Under the pieces are notes generated by a model that saw nothing but the letters and a program-made list of their open reading frames with translations, ran no database searches and was not told the origin of the DNA. From contig NZ_JABJUQ010000007.1 in the NCBI RefSeq assembly GCF_013155385.1, forward strand, positions 2,524,001-2,588,000: DNA of 64,000 bases. Reading direction: 5' to 3'. Within the stretch, counting starts at the first letter, position 1, and each line of letters opens with the position of its first letter. A program made the translations under genes and the position numbers. Positions 58,036-64,000 of the stretch are shown piece by piece. The stretch comes from Bacillus sp. WMMC1349 (GTDB lineage: Bacteria; Bacillota; Bacilli; Bacillales; Bacillaceae).

Positions 58036-58120
58036 TTAGAGCTCTAGCTCACCCATTCGAAGAAGCTCAACAACAGCTTGCGAACGGCCTTTCACACCCA
58101 ATTTTTGCATAGCATTCCGT
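58036..58120 (-). pseudogene. gerE: 3' fragment of gerE, interrupted by a recombinase element
   Basis: Encodes the last 27 or so residues of GerE: RNAMQKLGVKGRSQAVVELL then RMGELEL and stop. Family GerE is 74 residues; about the first 47, including most of the DNA-binding helix-turn-helix, are missing. Upstream of codon Ile/Arg the sequence no longer fits GerE and runs into the end of a serine recombinase gene. The 5' part is not in the window and should lie at the far end of the element. GerE is a LuxR-type regulator acting with sigma-K in the mother cell. The gene can work only if the element is removed. Confidence 0.88.
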
Positions 58121-58128
58121 ATGCATAC
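58119..58128. other. putative att core at the gerE break
   Basis: GTATGCATAC is a perfect 10-base palindrome exactly where gerE homology stops, 28 bases before the recombinase stop codon. Large serine recombinases cut at a central dinucleotide in imperfectly dyad sites, so this is a candidate crossover point. The partner site is outside the window. Confidence 0.45.
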
Positions 58129-58155
58129 CTGTGGCAAACCGAAGGATGAACAAGC

Positions 58156-59679
58156 TCATTTGAAGTTGTAGAAAAAGTCAACTGTTCCATCTTTATGTAT
58201 AACCAATTTATCAATTAAAACTGTAAATACATTGTATAAGTCCTGCTCCGTATTTTTCAGCTGTTCAAATGCATGTTGTATATTTGAAATATCAATGCTC
58301 TTCTCTTCTTCTCGTTCAAGCAGAAATAGATCATCATTCAATTTTTGAATTTGGTCTTCAAGTTCTTTCCGCTTTAATTGGAATTCCTCTTTAGATATGA
58401 GCGCATCTTCAAGATATAATTCAATTAAACGCTTTTTCTTCTCTTCAGCATTTTGAATTTCATATGTCATCAGCTTAATCTTTCTCTTTTTACGCTCTCC
58501 AAAATCATTTTTAAAATTTAATTTGAATGTTTTCCCTTTGGCATTCAGTTTTTTGATGACCATGGCACGAAAATCCTTATATTGTATCGGTGCATGGTTG
58601 ATACAGAGATCTTTCCCTCCGCGGCGGTATGCGCTACATTTCAAATAGTTAAATTCTGATTTTTCACCATTCTGCTTGTATTTATATGAAGGAAGAACAA
58701 CCATCTTAGACCCGCATTCTCCACAGACCATTTTCCCTCGAAGCTCATTCCGAGGAGAAAAACTTCTTTTAGCTAATCGCCGTTTTCGATTATTAGCCTT
58801 TTCAAACTCTTCTTCTGATATAATTTTTGGACACCATTCTTTATAAATGGTCCATTTTTCTTTAGGATTCCTCATGAATTTTTTCCGTCCGCCACTTTTA
58901 ACCGTTGTATATCGATTTGCAACGAAAACCCCGCAGTAAATCGGATTTTTTAAAATACGTTGAACAGTGGTCAATTGCCATTTATCAGATATTTGCGGCT
59001 TCACGATGTTACCAAGGCCCAACTCTTCATTTAATTTATATACAATTCTCTTATGTCCGTAGCCATGATGATTGTAAAGAGAAAAAATAAGACGTATAAC
59101 ATCTGCTTCTTCTTCATCGATGACAAGATGTTTACCTTCTTTTTTAAAACCAAAAGGAATCCTTCCCGAATGTTCTCCCCTTCTGGCCTTTGCTGCTAGG
59201 GACGCACTGGCTGCAACTGATACAGTTTGTGGATATTGAGCTGCAAACATTGAAAACATTTCAAATTTCCATGAATTCTTTCCTTCTGTTAAACTATCAT
59301 ATCCTTCTTCAAGTGTTACCACTCTTACACCATGAGCAAGAAGAACTTCACGTATTTCTAGGGCATCTTTCAAATCACGAGCCAAACGGCTAACAGACTT
59401 AAATATCACCATTTTTAACTTGTGATTTTTGGCTTTCTCTAAAATGAGCTGCATCGCTTTTCGATCAAGTAACACAGTTCCACTTATCCCGTCATCTAGC
59501 TGAATCGCTTCATCTTTCCATTCATAATTGTTTTGTTCAATCCAGTGGTGACAAATATCAATCTGGTTTTCTTTCGATGAAATTTGCTCATCTTTATCTG
59601 TAGATACACGTACATAAACAGCGTAAGGATAGTCATCAAATTTAATAAGCTCCTGTGTGTCTTTCTCTTCGAAGATCAT
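58156..59679 (-). CDS. large serine recombinase
   Basis: 507 residues. Resolvase catalytic domain about 18-165 with nucleophile Ser26 in VYVRVSTDKDEQ and the helper arginines in SVSRLARDLKDA; Recombinase domain about 190-300 (GRIPFGFKKEGKHL...IVYKLNEELGL...ILKNPIYCGVF); zinc ribbon with four Cys (CGECGSK ... CSAYRRGGKDLC) about 320-360; a coiled coil at 400-465. Same overall type as SpoIVCA and SprA, which excise skin and SPbeta. Its stop lies 36 bases from the gerE break. RBS AAAGGGGCG. Confidence 0.95.
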   Translation of the reverse strand: MIFEEKDTQELIKFDDYPYAVYVRVSTDKDEQISSKENQIDICHHWIEQNNYEWKDEAIQLDDGISGTVLLDRKAMQLILEKAKNHKLKMVIFKSVSRLARDLKDALEIREVLLAHGVRVVTLEEGYDSLTEGKNSWKFEMFSMFAAQYPQTVSVAASASLAAKARRGEHSGRIPFGFKKEGKHLVIDEEEADVIRLIFSLYNHHGYGHKRIVYKLNEELGLGNIVKPQISDKWQLTTVQRILKNPIYCGVFVANRYTTVKSGGRKKFMRNPKEKWTIYKEWCPKIISEEEFEKANNRKRRLAKRSFSPRNELRGKMVCGECGSKMVVLPSYKYKQNGEKSEFNYLKCSAYRRGGKDLCINHAPIQYKDFRAMVIKKLNAKGKTFKLNFKNDFGERKKRKIKLMTYEIQNAEEKKKRLIELYLEDALISKEEFQLKRKELEDQIQKLNDDLFLLEREEEKSIDISNIQHAFEQLKNTEQDLYNVFTVLIDKLVIHKDGTVDFFYNFK

Positions 59680-59715
59680 ACGCTCGCCCCTTTTAGCAAA
59701 TGGTACATGATAAGG

Positions 59716-59750
59716 AAATTATATCATAATAGGTGGTGGATTCCCAGCCA
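59716..59750 (-). promoter_or_regulatory. possible sigma-A promoter of the recombinase gene
   Basis: TTGGCT, 17-base spacer, TATGAT on the minus strand, about 40-70 bases before the start codon. I see no good sporulation sigma-E or sigma-K promoter, so developmental control, if any, may act through a separate directionality factor. Confidence 0.4.
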
Positions 59751-59855
59751 AAAGACAAACAAGCGTTCTTGTTTACTTTAGGGTATGACACGCCTTTATT
59801 CCTAGATAGAAACTATGTCTTGTGACATTAAAGACTGCACCATCAGGAAACAGAA

Positions 59856-59885
59856 AAAGCAGATCTTTTAAAGACCTGCTTTTTG
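59856..59885. terminator. terminator between the recombinase promoter and a small gene
   Basis: AGCAGatCTTT/AAAGacCTGCT stem with A and T runs on both sides; bidirectional in form. It ends the 38-residue gene on the minus strand. Confidence 0.8.
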
Positions 59886-59903
59886 GTAACTAATTAGTTA
59901 ATA

Positions 59904-60020
59904 TCATTTTGAATCATTTTTTTCTGATTTGTCTAAGAAAAAAGAAAACCACATTATACTTATCAACCCAGCTATTCCGAGAATTCCAGCCACTATATAA
60001 GCCCACATTGGTATGTCCAC
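59904..60020 (-). CDS. 38-residue single-span membrane protein
   Basis: GTG start with GGGAGGAAAAG upstream. DIPMWAYIVAGILGIAGLIS forms a membrane helix that continues IMWFSFFL; the tail DKSEKNDSK is charged. It lies just upstream of the recombinase gene on the same strand, with its own terminator. Such small membrane proteins occur in prophages; function unknown. It is not an obvious directionality factor. Confidence 0.6.
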   Translation of the reverse strand: MDIPMWAYIVAGILGIAGLISIMWFSFFLDKSEKNDSK

Positions 60021-60091
60021 TGCTTTTCCTCCCTAATGGATAACAAAGTAGATATGTAACTAACGCTAGAATGAAAGCTTACGAAGTTCTG

Positions 60092-60119
60092 TTGATCACG
60101 AGGAATGATATGGTAAAAT
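60092..60119 (+). promoter_or_regulatory. sigma-A promoter of the type I-like toxin
   Basis: TTGATC, 16-base spacer, TAAAAT. Predicted transcript start near 60126, giving a leader of about 65 bases with the hairpin at 60164-60184. Confidence 0.6.
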
Positions 60120-60163
60120 ATTCTTTGTATATAAAGTTCGGCTCCCTCAAGGGTGGTCTGGCT

Positions 60164-60184
60164 CACTCCCTATGAAAGGGGGTG
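60164..60184 (+). promoter_or_regulatory. hairpin sequestering the toxin ribosome-binding site
   Basis: CACTCCC pairs with GGGGGTG across a 7-base loop; the second arm is the Shine-Dalgarno AAAGGGGGTGA. This would keep translation low, as in known Bacillus type I toxin mRNAs. Confidence 0.65.
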
Positions 60185-60190
60185 AAGCTC

Positions 60191-60277
60191 ATGATGTCGA
60201 CCTTTCAAAGTATATCTTTGATGTTATTGTTCGGGATGTTTATCCTGGCATTGTTGACATACATTAAAAAGAAGTAG
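60191..60277 (+). CDS. type I toxin-like membrane peptide (holin-like toxin)
   Basis: 28 residues: MMSTFQSISLMLLFGMFILA then LLTYIKKK. One membrane helix ending in a Lys cluster; the MSTFQ-x-SLM start is the mark of the Bacillus 'putative holin-like toxin' group related to YonT/BsrE peptides. It may start at either of two adjacent ATGs. Too short for usual gene callers. An antisense antitoxin RNA would be expected from the minus strand to the right. Confidence 0.8.
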   Translation: MMSTFQSISLMLLFGMFILALLTYIKKK

Positions 60278-60320
60278 ACCTCCCCTTGAGCCGCCATACT
60301 TTTAGGGAGGTCAGAAAGTT
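60277..60320 (+). terminator. terminator of the toxin mRNA
   Basis: GACCTCCC...GGGAGGTC stem, followed by a T-rich stretch (AGAAAGTTTTCTT). In type I modules this 3' region is where the antitoxin RNA overlaps. Confidence 0.75.
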
Positions 60321-60757
60321 TTCTTGATCTGGAGCCAGCCCCTTTTGGGCCAGCTTTGTATACACTGACTCGACTGCTACCAACAGCCGGGTCTTTTTTA
60401 GTTTATGCAATTTCTTTAGAATTTATCCTTACCTTTATAATAAGTCAAGAAACAATTTTTTGCAATGAGATAGCGCCAAAACCAGCTTTTCAAGTTAGTG
60501 ATCCCCCCTCTCTTCTCGTCAGGGTGTCTGCAAAGGTCTTTAGAACTGTTATCTTAAGGTTAACTTTGAATCCAAGAAGACACCCACTAATAACTGAGTC
60601 TATTTAACTATTTAAAAGCAGAACATTAGTTCTTTTTTTGACCAAAAAGAGCCTTACGGTCTATTTCAGTTAGATTGTTTTTATTCTATTATTGAGAGTG
60701 CGGGAAAATGCAGGGATAAAACTGCAATTCATCCTTTTTAGTATTGAGGTGAAACAA
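60321..60757. other. intergenic, likely antitoxin RNA region
   Basis: About 435 bases between the toxin and the LXG operon. A GCCAGCCCC/GGGCCAGC-type hairpin at 60334-60356 could belong to a minus-strand antitoxin RNA overlapping the toxin mRNA end. An 83-codon frame at 60356-60607 has no RBS and is not called. The LXG operon promoter is not evident. Confidence 0.4.
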
Positions 60758-61198
60758 ATGAGTAATAAAAGTACAGTAGATAACTTTCACAGTAAGCTTA
60801 CCCAGCTGAATAATGATATTGATGAACAAATTAGAAAATTAAGAGCAGCAAAAAAAAAAATTCAGCAAGAACATGAAGAAGGTATTGTCGAAATTAGGCA
60901 GATTTTGAACCCACATCTTGATGAGCACTGGACTGGAGAGTTCGGTAGGAGCTTTGATAAAGAGCGAGATGAAGCCCATACATCAATGCATGATATCGTA
61001 AATGAAGAGTACTTAGAGTATATAGAAGATATCGAGAGTGAAATTTTCAAATTGCAACTAACGAAAGGACATCTTGCAAAAGCAGCAATAGATATACGTG
61101 GGGCAGAATATTTATTAGGACTAGGAGAAAAAGCAGTTGATGAGCTGAACAATAAAATAAGCTCAATTAAAAATAAATGGAGTGAGTGGTTTTCATGA
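60758..61198 (+). CDS. YwqH-like (DUF5082) LXG partner protein
   Basis: 146 residues, entirely helical with heptad patterns (DIDEQIRKLRAAKKKIQQEH; LGEKAVDELNNKISSIKNKW). The WTGEF element near 55 is WXG-like. First gene of a ywqH-ywqI-ywqJ type operon; its product is thought to help target or chaperone the LXG toxin to the type VII (Yuk/ESX) secretion system. RBS GAGGTGAAAC. Start set at ATG 60758. Confidence 0.85.
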   Translation: MSNKSTVDNFHSKLTQLNNDIDEQIRKLRAAKKKIQQEHEEGIVEIRQILNPHLDEHWTGEFGRSFDKERDEAHTSMHDIVNEEYLEYIEDIESEIFKLQLTKGHLAKAAIDIRGAEYLLGLGEKAVDELNNKISSIKNKWSEWFS

Positions 61199-61455
61199 CA
61201 ACTATTAAACTGAGACATGACATTGTCAACAAAAGTCTGAATAATGTAATGCGAGAATTAGATACCTTGGAGTTGGCAAAGCTAGGCTTTTTGGGCAAAA
61301 ATAAATCATCCTTCACGACAAAGTACCACAGCCGAGAGAAAGCCATCCATAAAATGATTGGCGAATACAAAAAAGCGGTTGAAAAGAATGTCAAGGATGT
61401 GAAAGGCAATGTCGATTTATTGAAAGAACAGGACAAGGCGATTGCCAGAAAATAA
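61195..61455 (+). CDS. YwqI-like (DUF5344) LXG partner protein
   Basis: 86 residues, helical: TTIKLRHDIVNKSLNNVMRE and KAIHKMIGEYKKAVEKNVKD. ATG overlaps the previous stop (ATGA), so translation is coupled. Size and order match the second small helical partner of LXG toxins, which forms a complex with the LXG domain. RBS GGAGTGAG. Confidence 0.85.
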   Translation: MTTIKLRHDIVNKSLNNVMRELDTLELAKLGFLGKNKSSFTTKYHSREKAIHKMIGEYKKAVEKNVKDVKGNVDLLKEQDKAIARK

Positions 61456-61475
61456 ATTGGGGAAAGGGAAATTCG

Positions 61476-63758
61476 ATGGCCAAAGATAAAAAAAATAAAA
61501 ATAAAGATAAAGCTAACGAGTTGGACAGTTCCGCTAAAGTCTTTGAGGCAAGCACTGTAATTGAAACAGCCGATGTACGAAAAAAGCAATATGGTGTTCT
61601 TGAAGATCAGCTGAAGAATCTAAAAATAGCTTTTCTCGAAGTGGTCAATTTAGGTGATAGCTTCACAGGAAAAGGCGCAAACAATATTAAAGACTTCTTT
61701 AGTGCGCAGGCTGAGGTTGTTGACAGTTGGTTAATTCTCGTAAAATCACAGATTGCTTTTTTTAACGGAATTGAGAGTATAATTGAAAAACATAAACTAT
61801 CTGATTCATACATAGAAATGTCTTTTTTAAATTCAGAGCTGAACAATGCAAACACAAAATCGCTCGAAATTGTCGCGAATCTGCACAATAATATGGCTAA
61901 GATTATATCCGATGTAAAGGATAACGTTGACCTACGCTTGTGGACACCAGATGATTTCTCAAACAAAATGGCAACAGCGCAAGTCACGCGATTAAATGCT
62001 ATGAATGCTGTAGATGAGCTTGATAAATCTCTGATATCTGAATATACTCTTTTAGAAATGGAAGACATCAGTATACTCGAAAAATATACAGCATTGATTC
62101 AATCAACAAGTAATGGAAAAAGTGCCTCTCCCATGTATTTTGATAAGAAAGCTTTTCACAATAATAAGTTTTATAAAAATTCACGAGAAATTGATAAGCA
62201 GGGAACTGAATATATCAAAGCAAAGAAACAGATAGAAGAAGCAGAAAAACAACAGGAACAAAGAATAAAAGAGCTAAAGGAAAAACTTGATGATATCCTA
62301 ATTAGTGATGATGAATATCTGAAGATTGCAGAAGAGATTGGAACTGAGAATCTTACAAAAGAGCAAAACCAACGCTATGCTTCACTTAAATTCAAAAAAA
62401 TGGAGCAAGAGAAGACCCTCGATGGGCGCATCCAAAGAGGCATCGAGCAAGGTACGAAAGAAGTATTCCTCGATACAGCGAAAGGAATTCGCGATACTAT
62501 AGAACATCCAATAGAGACGTTAGAGGGCATTTTCTACACAATTCAACATCCTAAAGAAACGTTAGAAGCTGTGGGGCACGAGATTAAAGAATCCTTCGTG
62601 AGAGACGTCATCAATGGTGATGCAGAAAGCAGGGCAAAATGGTTTACCTATGGTGTTGGAACAGTCGCGTTATCCGCTGCCGGAACAAAAGGAGCTGACA
62701 AAGTAGGTAAGTTAGCACAGGCTGGAAAGCTTGGCAAGACTGCATCTAAATTATATAAAGTCTCTAAAAAAATAGAACACAAGTCGCTTAAAGTTCAGAA
62801 AAAAGCTCTTGAAAAAAGTGTAAAATACTTCGAGAAATCTAAGCAAAAATTTGCTGCAAAATTAAAAGGGCTACAATTAAAAAAACCACTTGAATCAAAA
62901 TTGCAGTTTGCGGGAATTTCTGTGACAGATGCTGCTGATGAAGGTAACCTCTCTCATAAAATGTCGAATTCTAAGTCAGACCATTCGTCACAAAAAATTG
63001 AGAAGAATAAAGAAGCAACCAAAAGCACTGGAAAAGTTACCGAAAAACACGAAGACAAGAATGTTCAAAAAGGCAAGCACGGTGACGGAGATCCCAAAAC
63101 TCCGCATCAATCAAAATCAAAACCACATGAGTCAGTTCACAAGGTGGAAAAGCCTCACGAATCTAATAAAGATGCTGGAACCGTTTCTGGGAAGCATCCT
63201 CATGAGTCTTCTAAGCCGAAGAAGCATGAGCCAGGGGGAGATGCTGACAATGGAAGTAAGGGTACGGGTGATGCAGGGACACCTCCTCGATATGGTGAAA
63301 GAAAAATATCAGATGAAGAGCGTGAATTTTATAGGAGATTAACTCCAGATGATAAAGCAAGAGATAAGGTAAATGAAGGTCTAGATGAATCAGCATTACC
63401 AATACCAGATCCTGTTCTTCCTGGAAAAGAAATGACGAAACGGTTTGAGCCTGATCATATTGTAGCTTATGATAAAATAATCCATATGGATGGCTTTGAT
63501 ACGCTGACAGATAAACAAAAGCGCGAGGTTATAAATAATTTAGACAACTTTGAAGGTCTAAGCAGAGCTGCTAATGGTTCAAAGCAAGATAAGACTTACG
63601 AAGAATGGACTCACTATAAAAAAGGTAAGCCTGGAGAAATTGAAGTCAATCCTGAGTTTAGAAAGAGAATGATTAAAAAAGAAAAAGAGATGGAACGAAT
63701 ATTACAAAAGCAAATCGATGATTTTAATAAACAAAACTTAGATAAAGGAGATGGTTAA
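61476..63758 (+). CDS. LXG-domain polymorphic toxin with HNH-type nuclease tail
   Basis: 760 residues. N-terminal LXG domain about 15-220 (VFEASTVIETADVRKKQYGV; GANNIKDFFSAQAEVVDSWL), a helical middle with coiled coil (225-330), a hydrophobic/basic pre-toxin part (about 340-480; WFTYGVGTVALSAAG), a His/Lys/Pro/Glu-rich linker with repeated PHES units (about 495-610), and a C-terminal nuclease domain with PDHIVAYDKI (Asp660, His661), paired Asn near 690 and ANGSKQDKTYEEW near 700. Probably a DNase delivered by the type VII system to competitors. Followed with no gap by its immunity gene. Confidence 0.92.
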   Translation: MAKDKKNKNKDKANELDSSAKVFEASTVIETADVRKKQYGVLEDQLKNLKIAFLEVVNLGDSFTGKGANNIKDFFSAQAEVVDSWLILVKSQIAFFNGIESIIEKHKLSDSYIEMSFLNSELNNANTKSLEIVANLHNNMAKIISDVKDNVDLRLWTPDDFSNKMATAQVTRLNAMNAVDELDKSLISEYTLLEMEDISILEKYTALIQSTSNGKSASPMYFDKKAFHNNKFYKNSREIDKQGTEYIKAKKQIEEAEKQQEQRIKELKEKLDDILISDDEYLKIAEEIGTENLTKEQNQRYASLKFKKMEQEKTLDGRIQRGIEQGTKEVFLDTAKGIRDTIEHPIETLEGIFYTIQHPKETLEAVGHEIKESFVRDVINGDAESRAKWFTYGVGTVALSAAGTKGADKVGKLAQAGKLGKTASKLYKVSKKIEHKSLKVQKKALEKSVKYFEKSKQKFAAKLKGLQLKKPLESKLQFAGISVTDAADEGNLSHKMSNSKSDHSSQKIEKNKEATKSTGKVTEKHEDKNVQKGKHGDGDPKTPHQSKSKPHESVHKVEKPHESNKDAGTVSGKHPHESSKPKKHEPGGDADNGSKGTGDAGTPPRYGERKISDEEREFYRRLTPDDKARDKVNEGLDESALPIPDPVLPGKEMTKRFEPDHIVAYDKIIHMDGFDTLTDKQKREVINNLDNFEGLSRAANGSKQDKTYEEWTHYKKGKPGEIEVNPEFRKRMIKKEKEMERILQKQIDDFNKQNLDKGDG

Positions 63759-64000
63759 ATGGAACAAAAGATTGATTATCTAAGAAAATTTAACAAAAGT
63801 GCTCGCATAATTTCAAAGGATGAAGTTGATGACATTGCAGACTTAATTCCTAATTCTTGGCTTGGACTTTTTAAGGAGGATAATGTAAATAATAGAATTA
63901 ATATGCTATTGGGAATCTGGAGAAAGTATGTAGAAAAAGAATTAAGCACTACAATAAACTATTTGACTAATAATCTTGAAAATATTGAATTGCTTGAGAT
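63759..64000 (+). CDS. immunity protein for the LXG toxin (partial, runs off the window)
   Basis: First 80 or so residues: EQKIDYLRKFNKSARIISKD, VDDIADLIPNSWLGLFKEDN, then WRKYVEKELSTTINYL. ATG directly follows the toxin stop (TAAATG), RBS ATAAAGGAG inside the toxin end. Acidic and helical, as expected for a nuclease-neutralising protein. Family not recognised; C-terminus not seen. Confidence 0.8.
   Translation, partial: MEQKIDYLRKFNKSARIISKDEVDDIADLIPNSWLGLFKEDNVNNRINMLLGIWRKYVEKELSTTINYLTNNLENIELLE

What the first reader, a model, noticed from the sequence alone, without database searches (positions are those of the whole stretch)
58036..59750. gerE split by a serine-recombinase element: probable sporulation-controlled gene reassembly
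Seen: only the last 27 or so codons of gerE remain beside ysmB/racE, with its own terminator, and the break lies inside the helix-turn-helix. A large serine recombinase ends 36 bases away and its element runs beyond the window. Known: sigK (skin/SpoIVCA) and spsM (SPbeta/SprA) are interrupted in the same way and rebuilt in the mother cell by excision. Inference: gerE in this strain is inactive in growing cells and is restored in the mother cell by this recombinase. The cell line that excises does not inherit, so the element is never lost. The cargo (a LXG toxin and a type I-like toxin) adds an unusual competitive load to a developmental switch.
Basis: partly seen in the sequence, partly recalled or inferred. 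Interest (0 to 1): 0.92.

Follow-up and report, generated by a model that had tools for sequence, protein, structure and literature searches.

The report
Prophage remnant splitting sporulation gene gerE
A 16.7-kb phage remnant cuts a bacterial spore-coat control gene in two exactly in frame and carries its own cutting enzyme and probable on-switch, so the gene is most likely put together again only in the cell that builds the spore; the same trick in the same gene is already known from Bacillus cereus.

Summary
The missing gerE 5' half (codons 1-48) lies 16.7 kb away in the same contig and strand, in register with the 3' half in the window (codons 49-74); no other gerE was found in the genome. 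Between them lies a defective prophage: serine recombinase, holins, endolysin, LXG cluster, no head or tail gene among the proteins scanned. The crossover is at AA, gerE nt 145-146, the centre of a dyad formed by the element's ends. Recombinases 48-98% identical go with gerE broken at this point in 11 of 44 genus genomes and 12 of 397 Bacillales genomes (overlapping sets; G014 also has an intact copy). Relatives occur as free circles. All 12 also match a 41-52-residue protein family, the likely excision factor; a mother-cell-type CATA -10 precedes it in 11 of 17 elements read (AATA here). Excision in this strain was not observed. The kind is known: gin in B. cereus gerE (Abe 2017), whose discussion mentions a gerE prophage in B. 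glycinifermentans with an integrase 52% identical to GirC. New here: this member, the family's breadth, the candidate factor and its promoter.

The parts
58036..58116 (-). gerE 3' half: codons 49-74 and stop; no start of its own
58113..58116 (-). AATG at the recombination point; crossover placed at AA (58115-58116, gerE nt 145-146)
58117..58140 (-). Recombinase-end arm of the attachment site; matches the inverted arm at the other end of the element (just inside L012 17363) at 18 of 24 positions, 0 of 10,000 shuffles as good
58156..59679 (-). Large serine recombinase, 507 aa, intact; element integrase/excisionase
   Evidence: best match by E-value among solved structures is the SPbeta integrase YokA/SprA, with 3g13 next to it
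59718..59726 (-). Extended -10 (TGA-TATAAT) before the recombinase, conserved in the 9 upstream regions aligned (TATACT in one; G014 and G026 not in that alignment): probably a housekeeping sigma-A promoter
   Evidence: inference
60191..60277 (+). 28-aa holin-like toxin peptide (Pfam Hol_Tox 9e-12), cargo
60692..61198 (+). YwqH-like small protein of the LXG cluster (below the Pfam cut-off), cargo
61186..61455 (+). DUF5344 small protein of the LXG cluster, cargo
61476..63758 (+). LXG-domain toxin, 760 aa (Pfam LXG 3e-36), cargo
63759..64000 (+). Start of a 236-aa gene (weak SMI1/KNR4, below cut-off), likely immunity protein; runs on to L012 6969
58117..64000 (.). Part of the 16,747-bp element inside the window. 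Outside it (L012 position = window position minus 57500): endolysin, holin, XhlA, YqaH-like gene, 46-aa candidate excision factor at L012 15175-15312 (-), other arm, and gerE 5' half at L012 17364-17507 (-)

Best explanation
The element is a defective prophage that uses gerE as its attachment site and works as a gene-intervening element. In growing cells and in the forespore it stays integrated, so gerE is two useless pieces. The recombinase is made from a sigma-A type promoter and by itself can only integrate. In the mother cell the RNA polymerase of sporulation (sigma-E/sigma-K type) switches on the 46-residue protein near the other end of the element. This acts as recombination directionality factor: recombinase plus factor exchange the two ends at AA (nt 145-146), release a 16.7-kb circle and leave a 74-codon gerE behind the promoter that stays with the 5' half. 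The mother cell dies, so the inherited chromosome keeps the element. Shown in sequence: halves in register, no other gerE, dyad and crossover point, intact recombinase under purifying selection, the small gene accompanying the recombinase, free circles of relatives. Inferred: that the small protein is the factor, its sigma dependence, mother-cell timing, and excision in this strain.
For: 5' half in the same contig and strand, in register, no other gerE. In G300 AA is flanked by mismatches between the two junctions, which places the crossover there. Element ends form a dyad centred on AA. Recombinase G000 v G006 (B. changyiensis contig): pS 0.138, pN 0.009; 411 bases of host ysmB 0.18 and 0.0; outermost element ends 96.1% and 95.3% identical, host flanks 96.3% and 95.3%, as expected of an inherited insertion. 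gerE halves of G000 v intact gerE L016 (codons 2-48, 51-74): 16 synonymous, 0 nonsynonymous. Relatives: 11 of 44 genus and 12 of 397 order genomes (sets overlap) carry the recombinase at 48% or more, each with gerE broken at this point (G014 also has an intact copy, G424 judged from contig ends). G014's contigs hold both junctions and an unbroken gerE. Free circles with the joined attachment site: five viral contigs (one of them apparently G424's own C801) and the circular 40,956-bp B. altitudinis record NZ_CP124832.1. Small protein matched in 12 of 12 recombinase genomes and 4 of 385 others, P=7e-20, and present in the 4.1-5.3-kb elements G052, G097, G273. CATANNNT 24-27 bases before its start in 11 of 17 elements; 6 of 9 lineages v at most 3 of 9 in 2000 shuffles; 3 of 156 control ORFs. 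Precedents: gin/GirC+GirX (PMC5595907), SPbeta/SprA+SprB (PMC4191935).
Against: No reads, RNA or culture data from this strain. The small gene's -10 in the window genome is AATACATT, one base off the CATACANT recalled for sigma-E; no -35 was recognised; the motif was chosen after seeing the upstream blocks. The Fisher test treats related genomes as independent. G388's small gene reads through a stop. Four genomes have the small protein without this recombinase. Mixed assemblies may reflect phage induction or mixed strains and say nothing on timing. The small protein has no detectable similarity to SprB, GirX was not held, and its predicted fold is low-confidence (pLDDT 70, pTM 0.31). Substitutions between split and intact gerE largely predate the insertion; only G000 v G006 speaks for the time after it. 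Distant viral relatives at 42-45% (L181, L187, L188, L189, L196) run on without gerE in the 400 bases tested, so the gerE specificity does not extend to all relatives. Nothing here shows that this host needs GerE.
Confidence: 0.82

Rival explanations
1. Ordinary prophage biology: excision follows DNA damage or spontaneous induction in growing cells; gerE is only a convenient attachment site and sporulation has no special role.
For: A full-length relative (G021) has portal, head, tape-measure, terminase and lysis genes; free circles of relatives occur in viral contigs and in a B. altitudinis assembly.
Against: No head or tail gene among the 20 proteins of this element scanned with PHROGs, yet its recombinase is under strong purifying selection; the block before the small gene resembles mother-cell promoters; members of 4.1-5.3 kb still hold recombinase and small gene (their other frames were not annotated).
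Confidence: 0.1
2. Dead insertion: gerE was destroyed, the element no longer moves, and the strain makes GerE-less spores.
For: The element has lost most phage genes; gerE can be lost: in G013 its first 50 codons run into racE and no 3' half was found.
Against: Intact recombinase with pN/pS about 0.07 between two split species; no nonsynonymous change in either half of G000 against L016 or L013; both attachment arms kept.
Confidence: 0.05
3. Reversible population switch: a fraction of growing cells carries the circle free and gerE whole, and re-integration restores the split.
For: G014 shows both forms; G424's gerE contigs end at the core while its phage contig holds the joined site; a B. altitudinis element was assembled as a plasmid.
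Against: Those elements are about 41-42 kb, phage-sized; a remnant should be lost when free. In the window genome the element is integrated in a 4.03-Mb contig; a free form was not searched for.
Confidence: 0.05

Closest known systems
gin element in gerE of Bacillus cereus ATCC10987 (GirC/GirX), PMC5595907
   Same: Same gene split in its helix-turn-helix; serine recombinase plus a 42-aa factor; cleavage predicted by the authors at the same diadenine; rejoining during sporulation shown there.
   Different: gin: 28.6 kb, three serine recombinases, no phage genes, 9-bp common stretch nt 138-146. Here: 16.7 kb, one recombinase seen, lysis genes of a phage, common stretch nt 145-155. GirC and GirX sequences were not held for comparison.
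Prophage in gerE of Bacillus glycinifermentans BGLY (LT603683), mentioned in the discussion of PMC5595907
   Same: Prophage at gerE; integrase 52% identical to GirC according to the paper.
   Different: Rearrangement not tested there; not examined here by name (whether G007, recombinase 84% identical, is that species or a relative was not established).
SPbeta prophage in spsM (SprA/SprB), PMC4191935
   Same: Phage integrase at one end with a predicted sigma-A promoter, small factor near the other end with a mother-cell promoter of poor -35 and a start site 20 nt before the gene; a remnant still excises in sporulation.
   Different: Other gene; recombinase about 24% identical over 434 aa; small protein without detectable similarity to SprB.
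skin element in sigK (SpoIVCA)
   Same: Same logic of prophage remnant and mother-cell gene; the element carries a YqaH-like gene, a name recalled from skin.
   Different: Other gene and site; SpoIVCA not compared here.

Membership tests
Sporulation gene-intervening elements (general kind) | Host sporulation gene split into two in-frame halves with an element between them | tested here: met
Sporulation gene-intervening elements (general kind) | Element encodes its own site-specific recombinase and has short common cores with inverted arms | tested here: met
Sporulation gene-intervening elements (general kind) | Excision in the mother cell during sporulation | not testable with these tools
   No culture, read or RNA data
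Sporulation gene-intervening elements (general kind) | Sporulation-controlled directionality factor | tested here: inconclusive
   Conserved small gene matched in 12 of 12 recombinase genomes; CATA -10 in 11 of 17 elements, AATA variant here
gin element of B. cereus | Inserted in gerE with 9-bp common stretch CATCTCAAA (nt 138-146) | tested here: not met
   Common stretch here is AATGCTATGCA, nt 145-155; the AA dinucleotide is shared
gin element of B. cereus | Three serine recombinases | tested here: not met
   The only frames over 310 aa in the element are one recombinase and the LXG protein
gin element of B. cereus | No phage-related genes | tested here: not met
   Holin, XhlA, endolysin
gin element of B. 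cereus | GirC/GirX homologues | not tested
   GirC and GirX sequences not held; 52% of GirC to a gerE-prophage integrase is the paper's figure
SPbeta-type intervening prophage (SprA/SprB) | Insertion in spsM with SprA/SprB homologues | tested here: not met
   Inserted in gerE; SprA about 24% over 434 aa, no detectable similarity to SprB

The most novel reading that the evidence does not exclude
A portable developmental switch: one phage-born recombinase lineage and a 41-52-residue directionality factor with a built-in mother-cell promoter have made gerE, at one fixed dinucleotide, a recurrent docking site across Bacillales, from 37-50-kb prophages down to 4.1-5.3-kb elements. A second recombinase clade (about 30% identical) breaks gerE at or next to the same dinucleotide. 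Phage and host thus repeatedly arrive at a gene that is broken in the germline and rebuilt only in the dying cell.
Probability: 0.6. Interest if true: 0.68.

Novelty: new member of a known kind. Interest (0 to 1): 0.5.

Why it matters
It moves gerE interruption from one studied B. cereus element (and one prophage mentioned in passing) to a family seen in 12 of 397 sampled Bacillales genomes, and names a testable two-gene module. The smallest members suggest how little DNA a sporulation-controlled rearrangement needs. Splits may also hide gerE from annotation: such genomes can look gerE-less although they probably are not.

Tried and rejected
Assembly artefact: rejected, the same junctions recur in ten other genus genomes and in viral contigs. 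Second intact gerE: none found. Mother-cell promoter before the recombinase itself: the conserved element there is a sigma-A-like extended -10; control was sought at the small gene instead. The element as a known phage: no megablast match of 58120-64000 in 50,697 phage records; nearest recombinase 56% (Caldibacillus phage CBP1). Small protein in solved structures: one match, E=1.9, not meaningful. Anti-phage genes: 0 of 8 proteins of the element given to PADLOC matched. The second recombinase clade as the same family: rejected on 30-33% identity and because the gerE family proper forms its own branch (99/99; SprA is a long branch and the fork of the second clade itself is weak, 85/76). A looser -10 pattern, also made after seeing the sequences, gave 7 of 9 lineages, up to 4 of 9 in shuffles, 7 of 156 controls. 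L173 looked like a circle from its position but gave no comparable dyad (12/24) and was not counted. No host tree was made; equal divergence of element ends and host flanks is the only evidence for inheritance, and the next 800 bases of the element are less alike (87.9%). Nine genomes of one genus (g87) with weak gerE scores were taken as diverged but whole after checking one of the nine, G202; the 16 of 397 without a match were not examined.

Full report
1. The observation. The window is G000:C7:2524001-2588000. On its minus strand 58036-58116 encodes the last 26 GerE codons and the stop. A search of the whole genome with GerE gave 11 matches at E<=10: a 5' half (residues 1-55 matched, 91%, E=1.9e-27) at C7:2598843-2599007, the 3' half in the window, and nine stretches inside longer open frames of 212-394 residues. 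No other gerE was found. The halves share strand and contig; the 5' half runs in frame to nt 144 and the 3' half starts in frame at nt 145, so the register is right (48+26 codons). Core to core the element is 16,747 bp. The halves were not joined; this is arithmetic on coordinates.

2. The junctions. Read on the gerE strand, the 5' half runs into AATGCTATGCA-TGACTGTAGCAAACC and the 3' half is preceded by GGTTTGCCACAGGTATGCATACGG-AATG. The two element arms match as an inverted repeat at 18 of 24 positions around AA = gerE nt 145-146 (0 of 10,000 shuffles as good); the host half-sites match at 8 of 24. In G300 the AA is flanked by mismatches between the two junctions, which places the crossover there. 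Abe et al. predict cleavage of gin at the diadenine at the end of CATCTCAAA, nt 138-146, hence the same two bases (PMC5595907; parts 1-4 of 6 of the text read).

3. The element. Besides the recombinase (Pfam Resolvase, Recombinase and zinc-ribbon domains; PHROG integrase 5e-104) it holds an endolysin, an SPP1-type holin, XhlA, a weak DNA-binding match, a short IrrE-like peptidase at the Pfam cut-off, a YqaH-like gene, several phage families of unknown function, a B_lectin-like protein (below the Pfam cut-off), an LXG toxin with two small partners and a weak SMI1/KNR4 neighbour, and a 28-residue holin-like toxin. No head, tail, portal or large terminase protein appeared as best match among the 20 proteins scanned with PHROGs. 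It is a defective prophage. A full-length relative, G021 (36.6 kb between its halves), has portal, head, tape-measure, large terminase and endolysin genes (10 of its ORFs scanned).

4. Relatives in the genus. Of 44 genus genomes including the window's, 33 have a full gerE (one of these, G014, also a 5' fragment), 10 have two halves, and one (G013) has only the 5' part, fused to racE. The recombinase occurs at 55% identity or more in 11 of 44: the 10 split genomes and G014; a twelfth match, G022, is only 31% identical and its gerE is whole. All 10 are broken at the same nucleotide with the recombinase next to the 3' half. In G014 one contig ends in gerE at nt 148, the two ends of a 41-kb phage contig each carry 20 bp of gerE, and a third contig has gerE unbroken: the sequenced DNA held both forms. 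G006 is Bacillus changyiensis by its contig: recombinase 98% identical, outermost element ends 96.1% and 95.3%, host flanks 96.3% and 95.3%, the 800 bases inside the recombinase end 87.9%, the middle largely without match. Recombinase pS 0.138 and pN 0.009; ysmB of the host (411 bases) 0.18 and 0.0. This fits an old insertion inherited by both species while the recombinase was kept working.

5. Relatives in the order. In 397 Bacillales genomes of at least 95% completeness 381 have a gerE match at 1e-17 (the list of matches was cut, so splits were picked by best score); 12 have the recombinase at E<=1e-70, 48-100% identical. Ten of these show two gerE halves, G014 both forms, and in G424 the gerE contigs end at the core while its phage contig carries the joined site. 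Four further genomes (G124, G134, G182, G358) are split by recombinases 30-33% identical by tblastn, outside the branch that unites the family above (99/99; SprA is a long branch there). So at least 16 of 397 have a broken gerE. In an earlier draw of 299 genomes, 10 had the recombinase; one of them, G099, had a full gerE and also a contig with recombinase and 3' half; it is listed as 6% contaminated and is outside the 397. In G388 the recombinase is inverted with respect to gerE and lies at the 5' half; G424 appears alike from its joined site. In G303 the 3' half lies 2.8 kb behind the recombinase.

6. Free circles. A scan of viral contigs with the recombinase profile gave 53 loci, of which 43 were read past the recombinase; the other ten are contigs whose tails were printed. 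Many end at the recombinase stop. Eleven were flagged as running into gerE-3' (L159, L160, L162-L165, L168, L175, L194, L195, L197); L169 shows a diverged gerE-3' by eye. Against a universal rule, L181, L187, L188, L189 and L196 (42-45% identical) run on without gerE in the 400 bases tested; their site is unknown. Five carry the joined attachment site with a dyad of 19-21 of 24 around AA or, for inverted members, TT: L161, L170 (same contig as L035), L172, L176, L178 (42,060 bp, same length and recombinase place as G424's C801). L173 did not qualify. The 'plasmid' NZ_CP124832.1 of B. altitudinis, 40,956 bp circular, carries the recombinase (55%) and its record starts exactly at the dyad centre: in all likelihood an excised element.

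7. The candidate directionality factor. At L012 15175-15312 (-), about 2.1 kb from the far end, lies a 46-residue gene. Homologues (41-52 residues; invariant M, G, A, P, Y in alignment A1) were found in all 17 elements whose relevant part was held; in the held stretches of G388 and G424 the motif scan found none, but the later profile search matched both. By that search 16 of 397 genomes have it: all 12 with the recombinase (G388's copy reads through a stop) and 4 of 385 without, one of these weak (Fisher 7e-20; relatedness not corrected). In the elements of 4.1-5.3 kb it remains, in G052 and G097 directly before the recombinase. Before it lies a conserved block, GTCC...TGCATANNNT, with CATANNNT 24-27 bases before the start in 11 of 17; the five nearest the window have AATACA(T/C)T and G300 CATACACA. 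Over 9 lineages 6 hit, against at most 3 in 2000 simple shuffles; 3 of 156 control ORFs hit. The motif was chosen after seeing the blocks; sigma-E (CATACANT) and sigma-K (CATANNNTA) consensus sequences are recalled. In SPbeta the integrase has a predicted sigma-A promoter and sprB a mother-cell promoter with a poor -35 and a start site 20 nt before the gene (PMC4191935, passages); the anatomy here is alike. The small protein has no detectable similarity to SprB. An AlphaFold model is of low confidence, with one helix.

8. Selection on gerE. In the window genome the two halves (codons 2-48, 51-74) differ from the intact L016 by 16 synonymous and 0 nonsynonymous changes; over the ten split genomes the sums against L016 are 144:1 (5' halves) and 94:7 (3' halves; path-averaged counts); two intact genes (L013, L016) compare as 30:1. 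Most of this predates the insertion, so it shows absence of decay rather than selection after the split.

9. Reading and limits. Gene-intervening element with programmed excision is the best reading. Steps seen in sequence: split, register, arms, recombinase, small gene, circles of relatives. Steps inferred: factor function, sigma factor, mother-cell timing, excision here. The kind is in print for this very gene. Of the papers listed by searches with gerE, prophage, phage, intervening or gin terms (open-licence library only; one search gave none), only PMC5595907 presents itself as a study of split gerE; the B. glycinifermentans prophage is named in its discussion. PMC10747680, PMC6957869 and PMC10745906 were seen in listings only. 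Hence interest 0.5, not 0.92.

Noticed in passing
L051 (G013:C1:3218500-3221500): gerE codons 1-50 run straight into racE as one 332-residue open frame; no 3' half was found. Looks like a natural loss of gerE by deletion, in a genome without the recombinase.
   Followed up: partly
L100, L101, L103, L104 and L107, L109, L110, L111 (G124, G134, G182, G358): A second serine recombinase clade, 30-33% identical, also splits gerE at or beside the same dinucleotide.
   Followed up: partly
NZ_CP124832.1 (L201, L202): A circular 'plasmid' of Bacillus altitudinis looks like the excised gerE phage; a gene annotated as AimR-family receptor lies beside the attachment site.
   Followed up: partly
L126, L127 (G388, G424): In one genus (g24) the recombinase is inverted relative to gerE; in G388 it lies next to the 5' half.
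   Followed up: partly
L141, L142, L145 (G101, G183, G207): The small protein family occurs without the gerE recombinase in three genomes (a fourth, G261, is weak); no homologous recombinase within the 1.5-kb flanks held, so it may serve other integrases.
   Followed up: partly
G000:C1:39775-39924 and C7:505186-505335: Two contigs of the window's assembly give matches of the same score and identity; with 5.56% contamination listed, C1 may be redundant or foreign.
   Followed up: no
window about 59902-60030 (-): Short open frame between recombinase and toxin, read by eye as a small membrane peptide; not tested.
   Followed up: no
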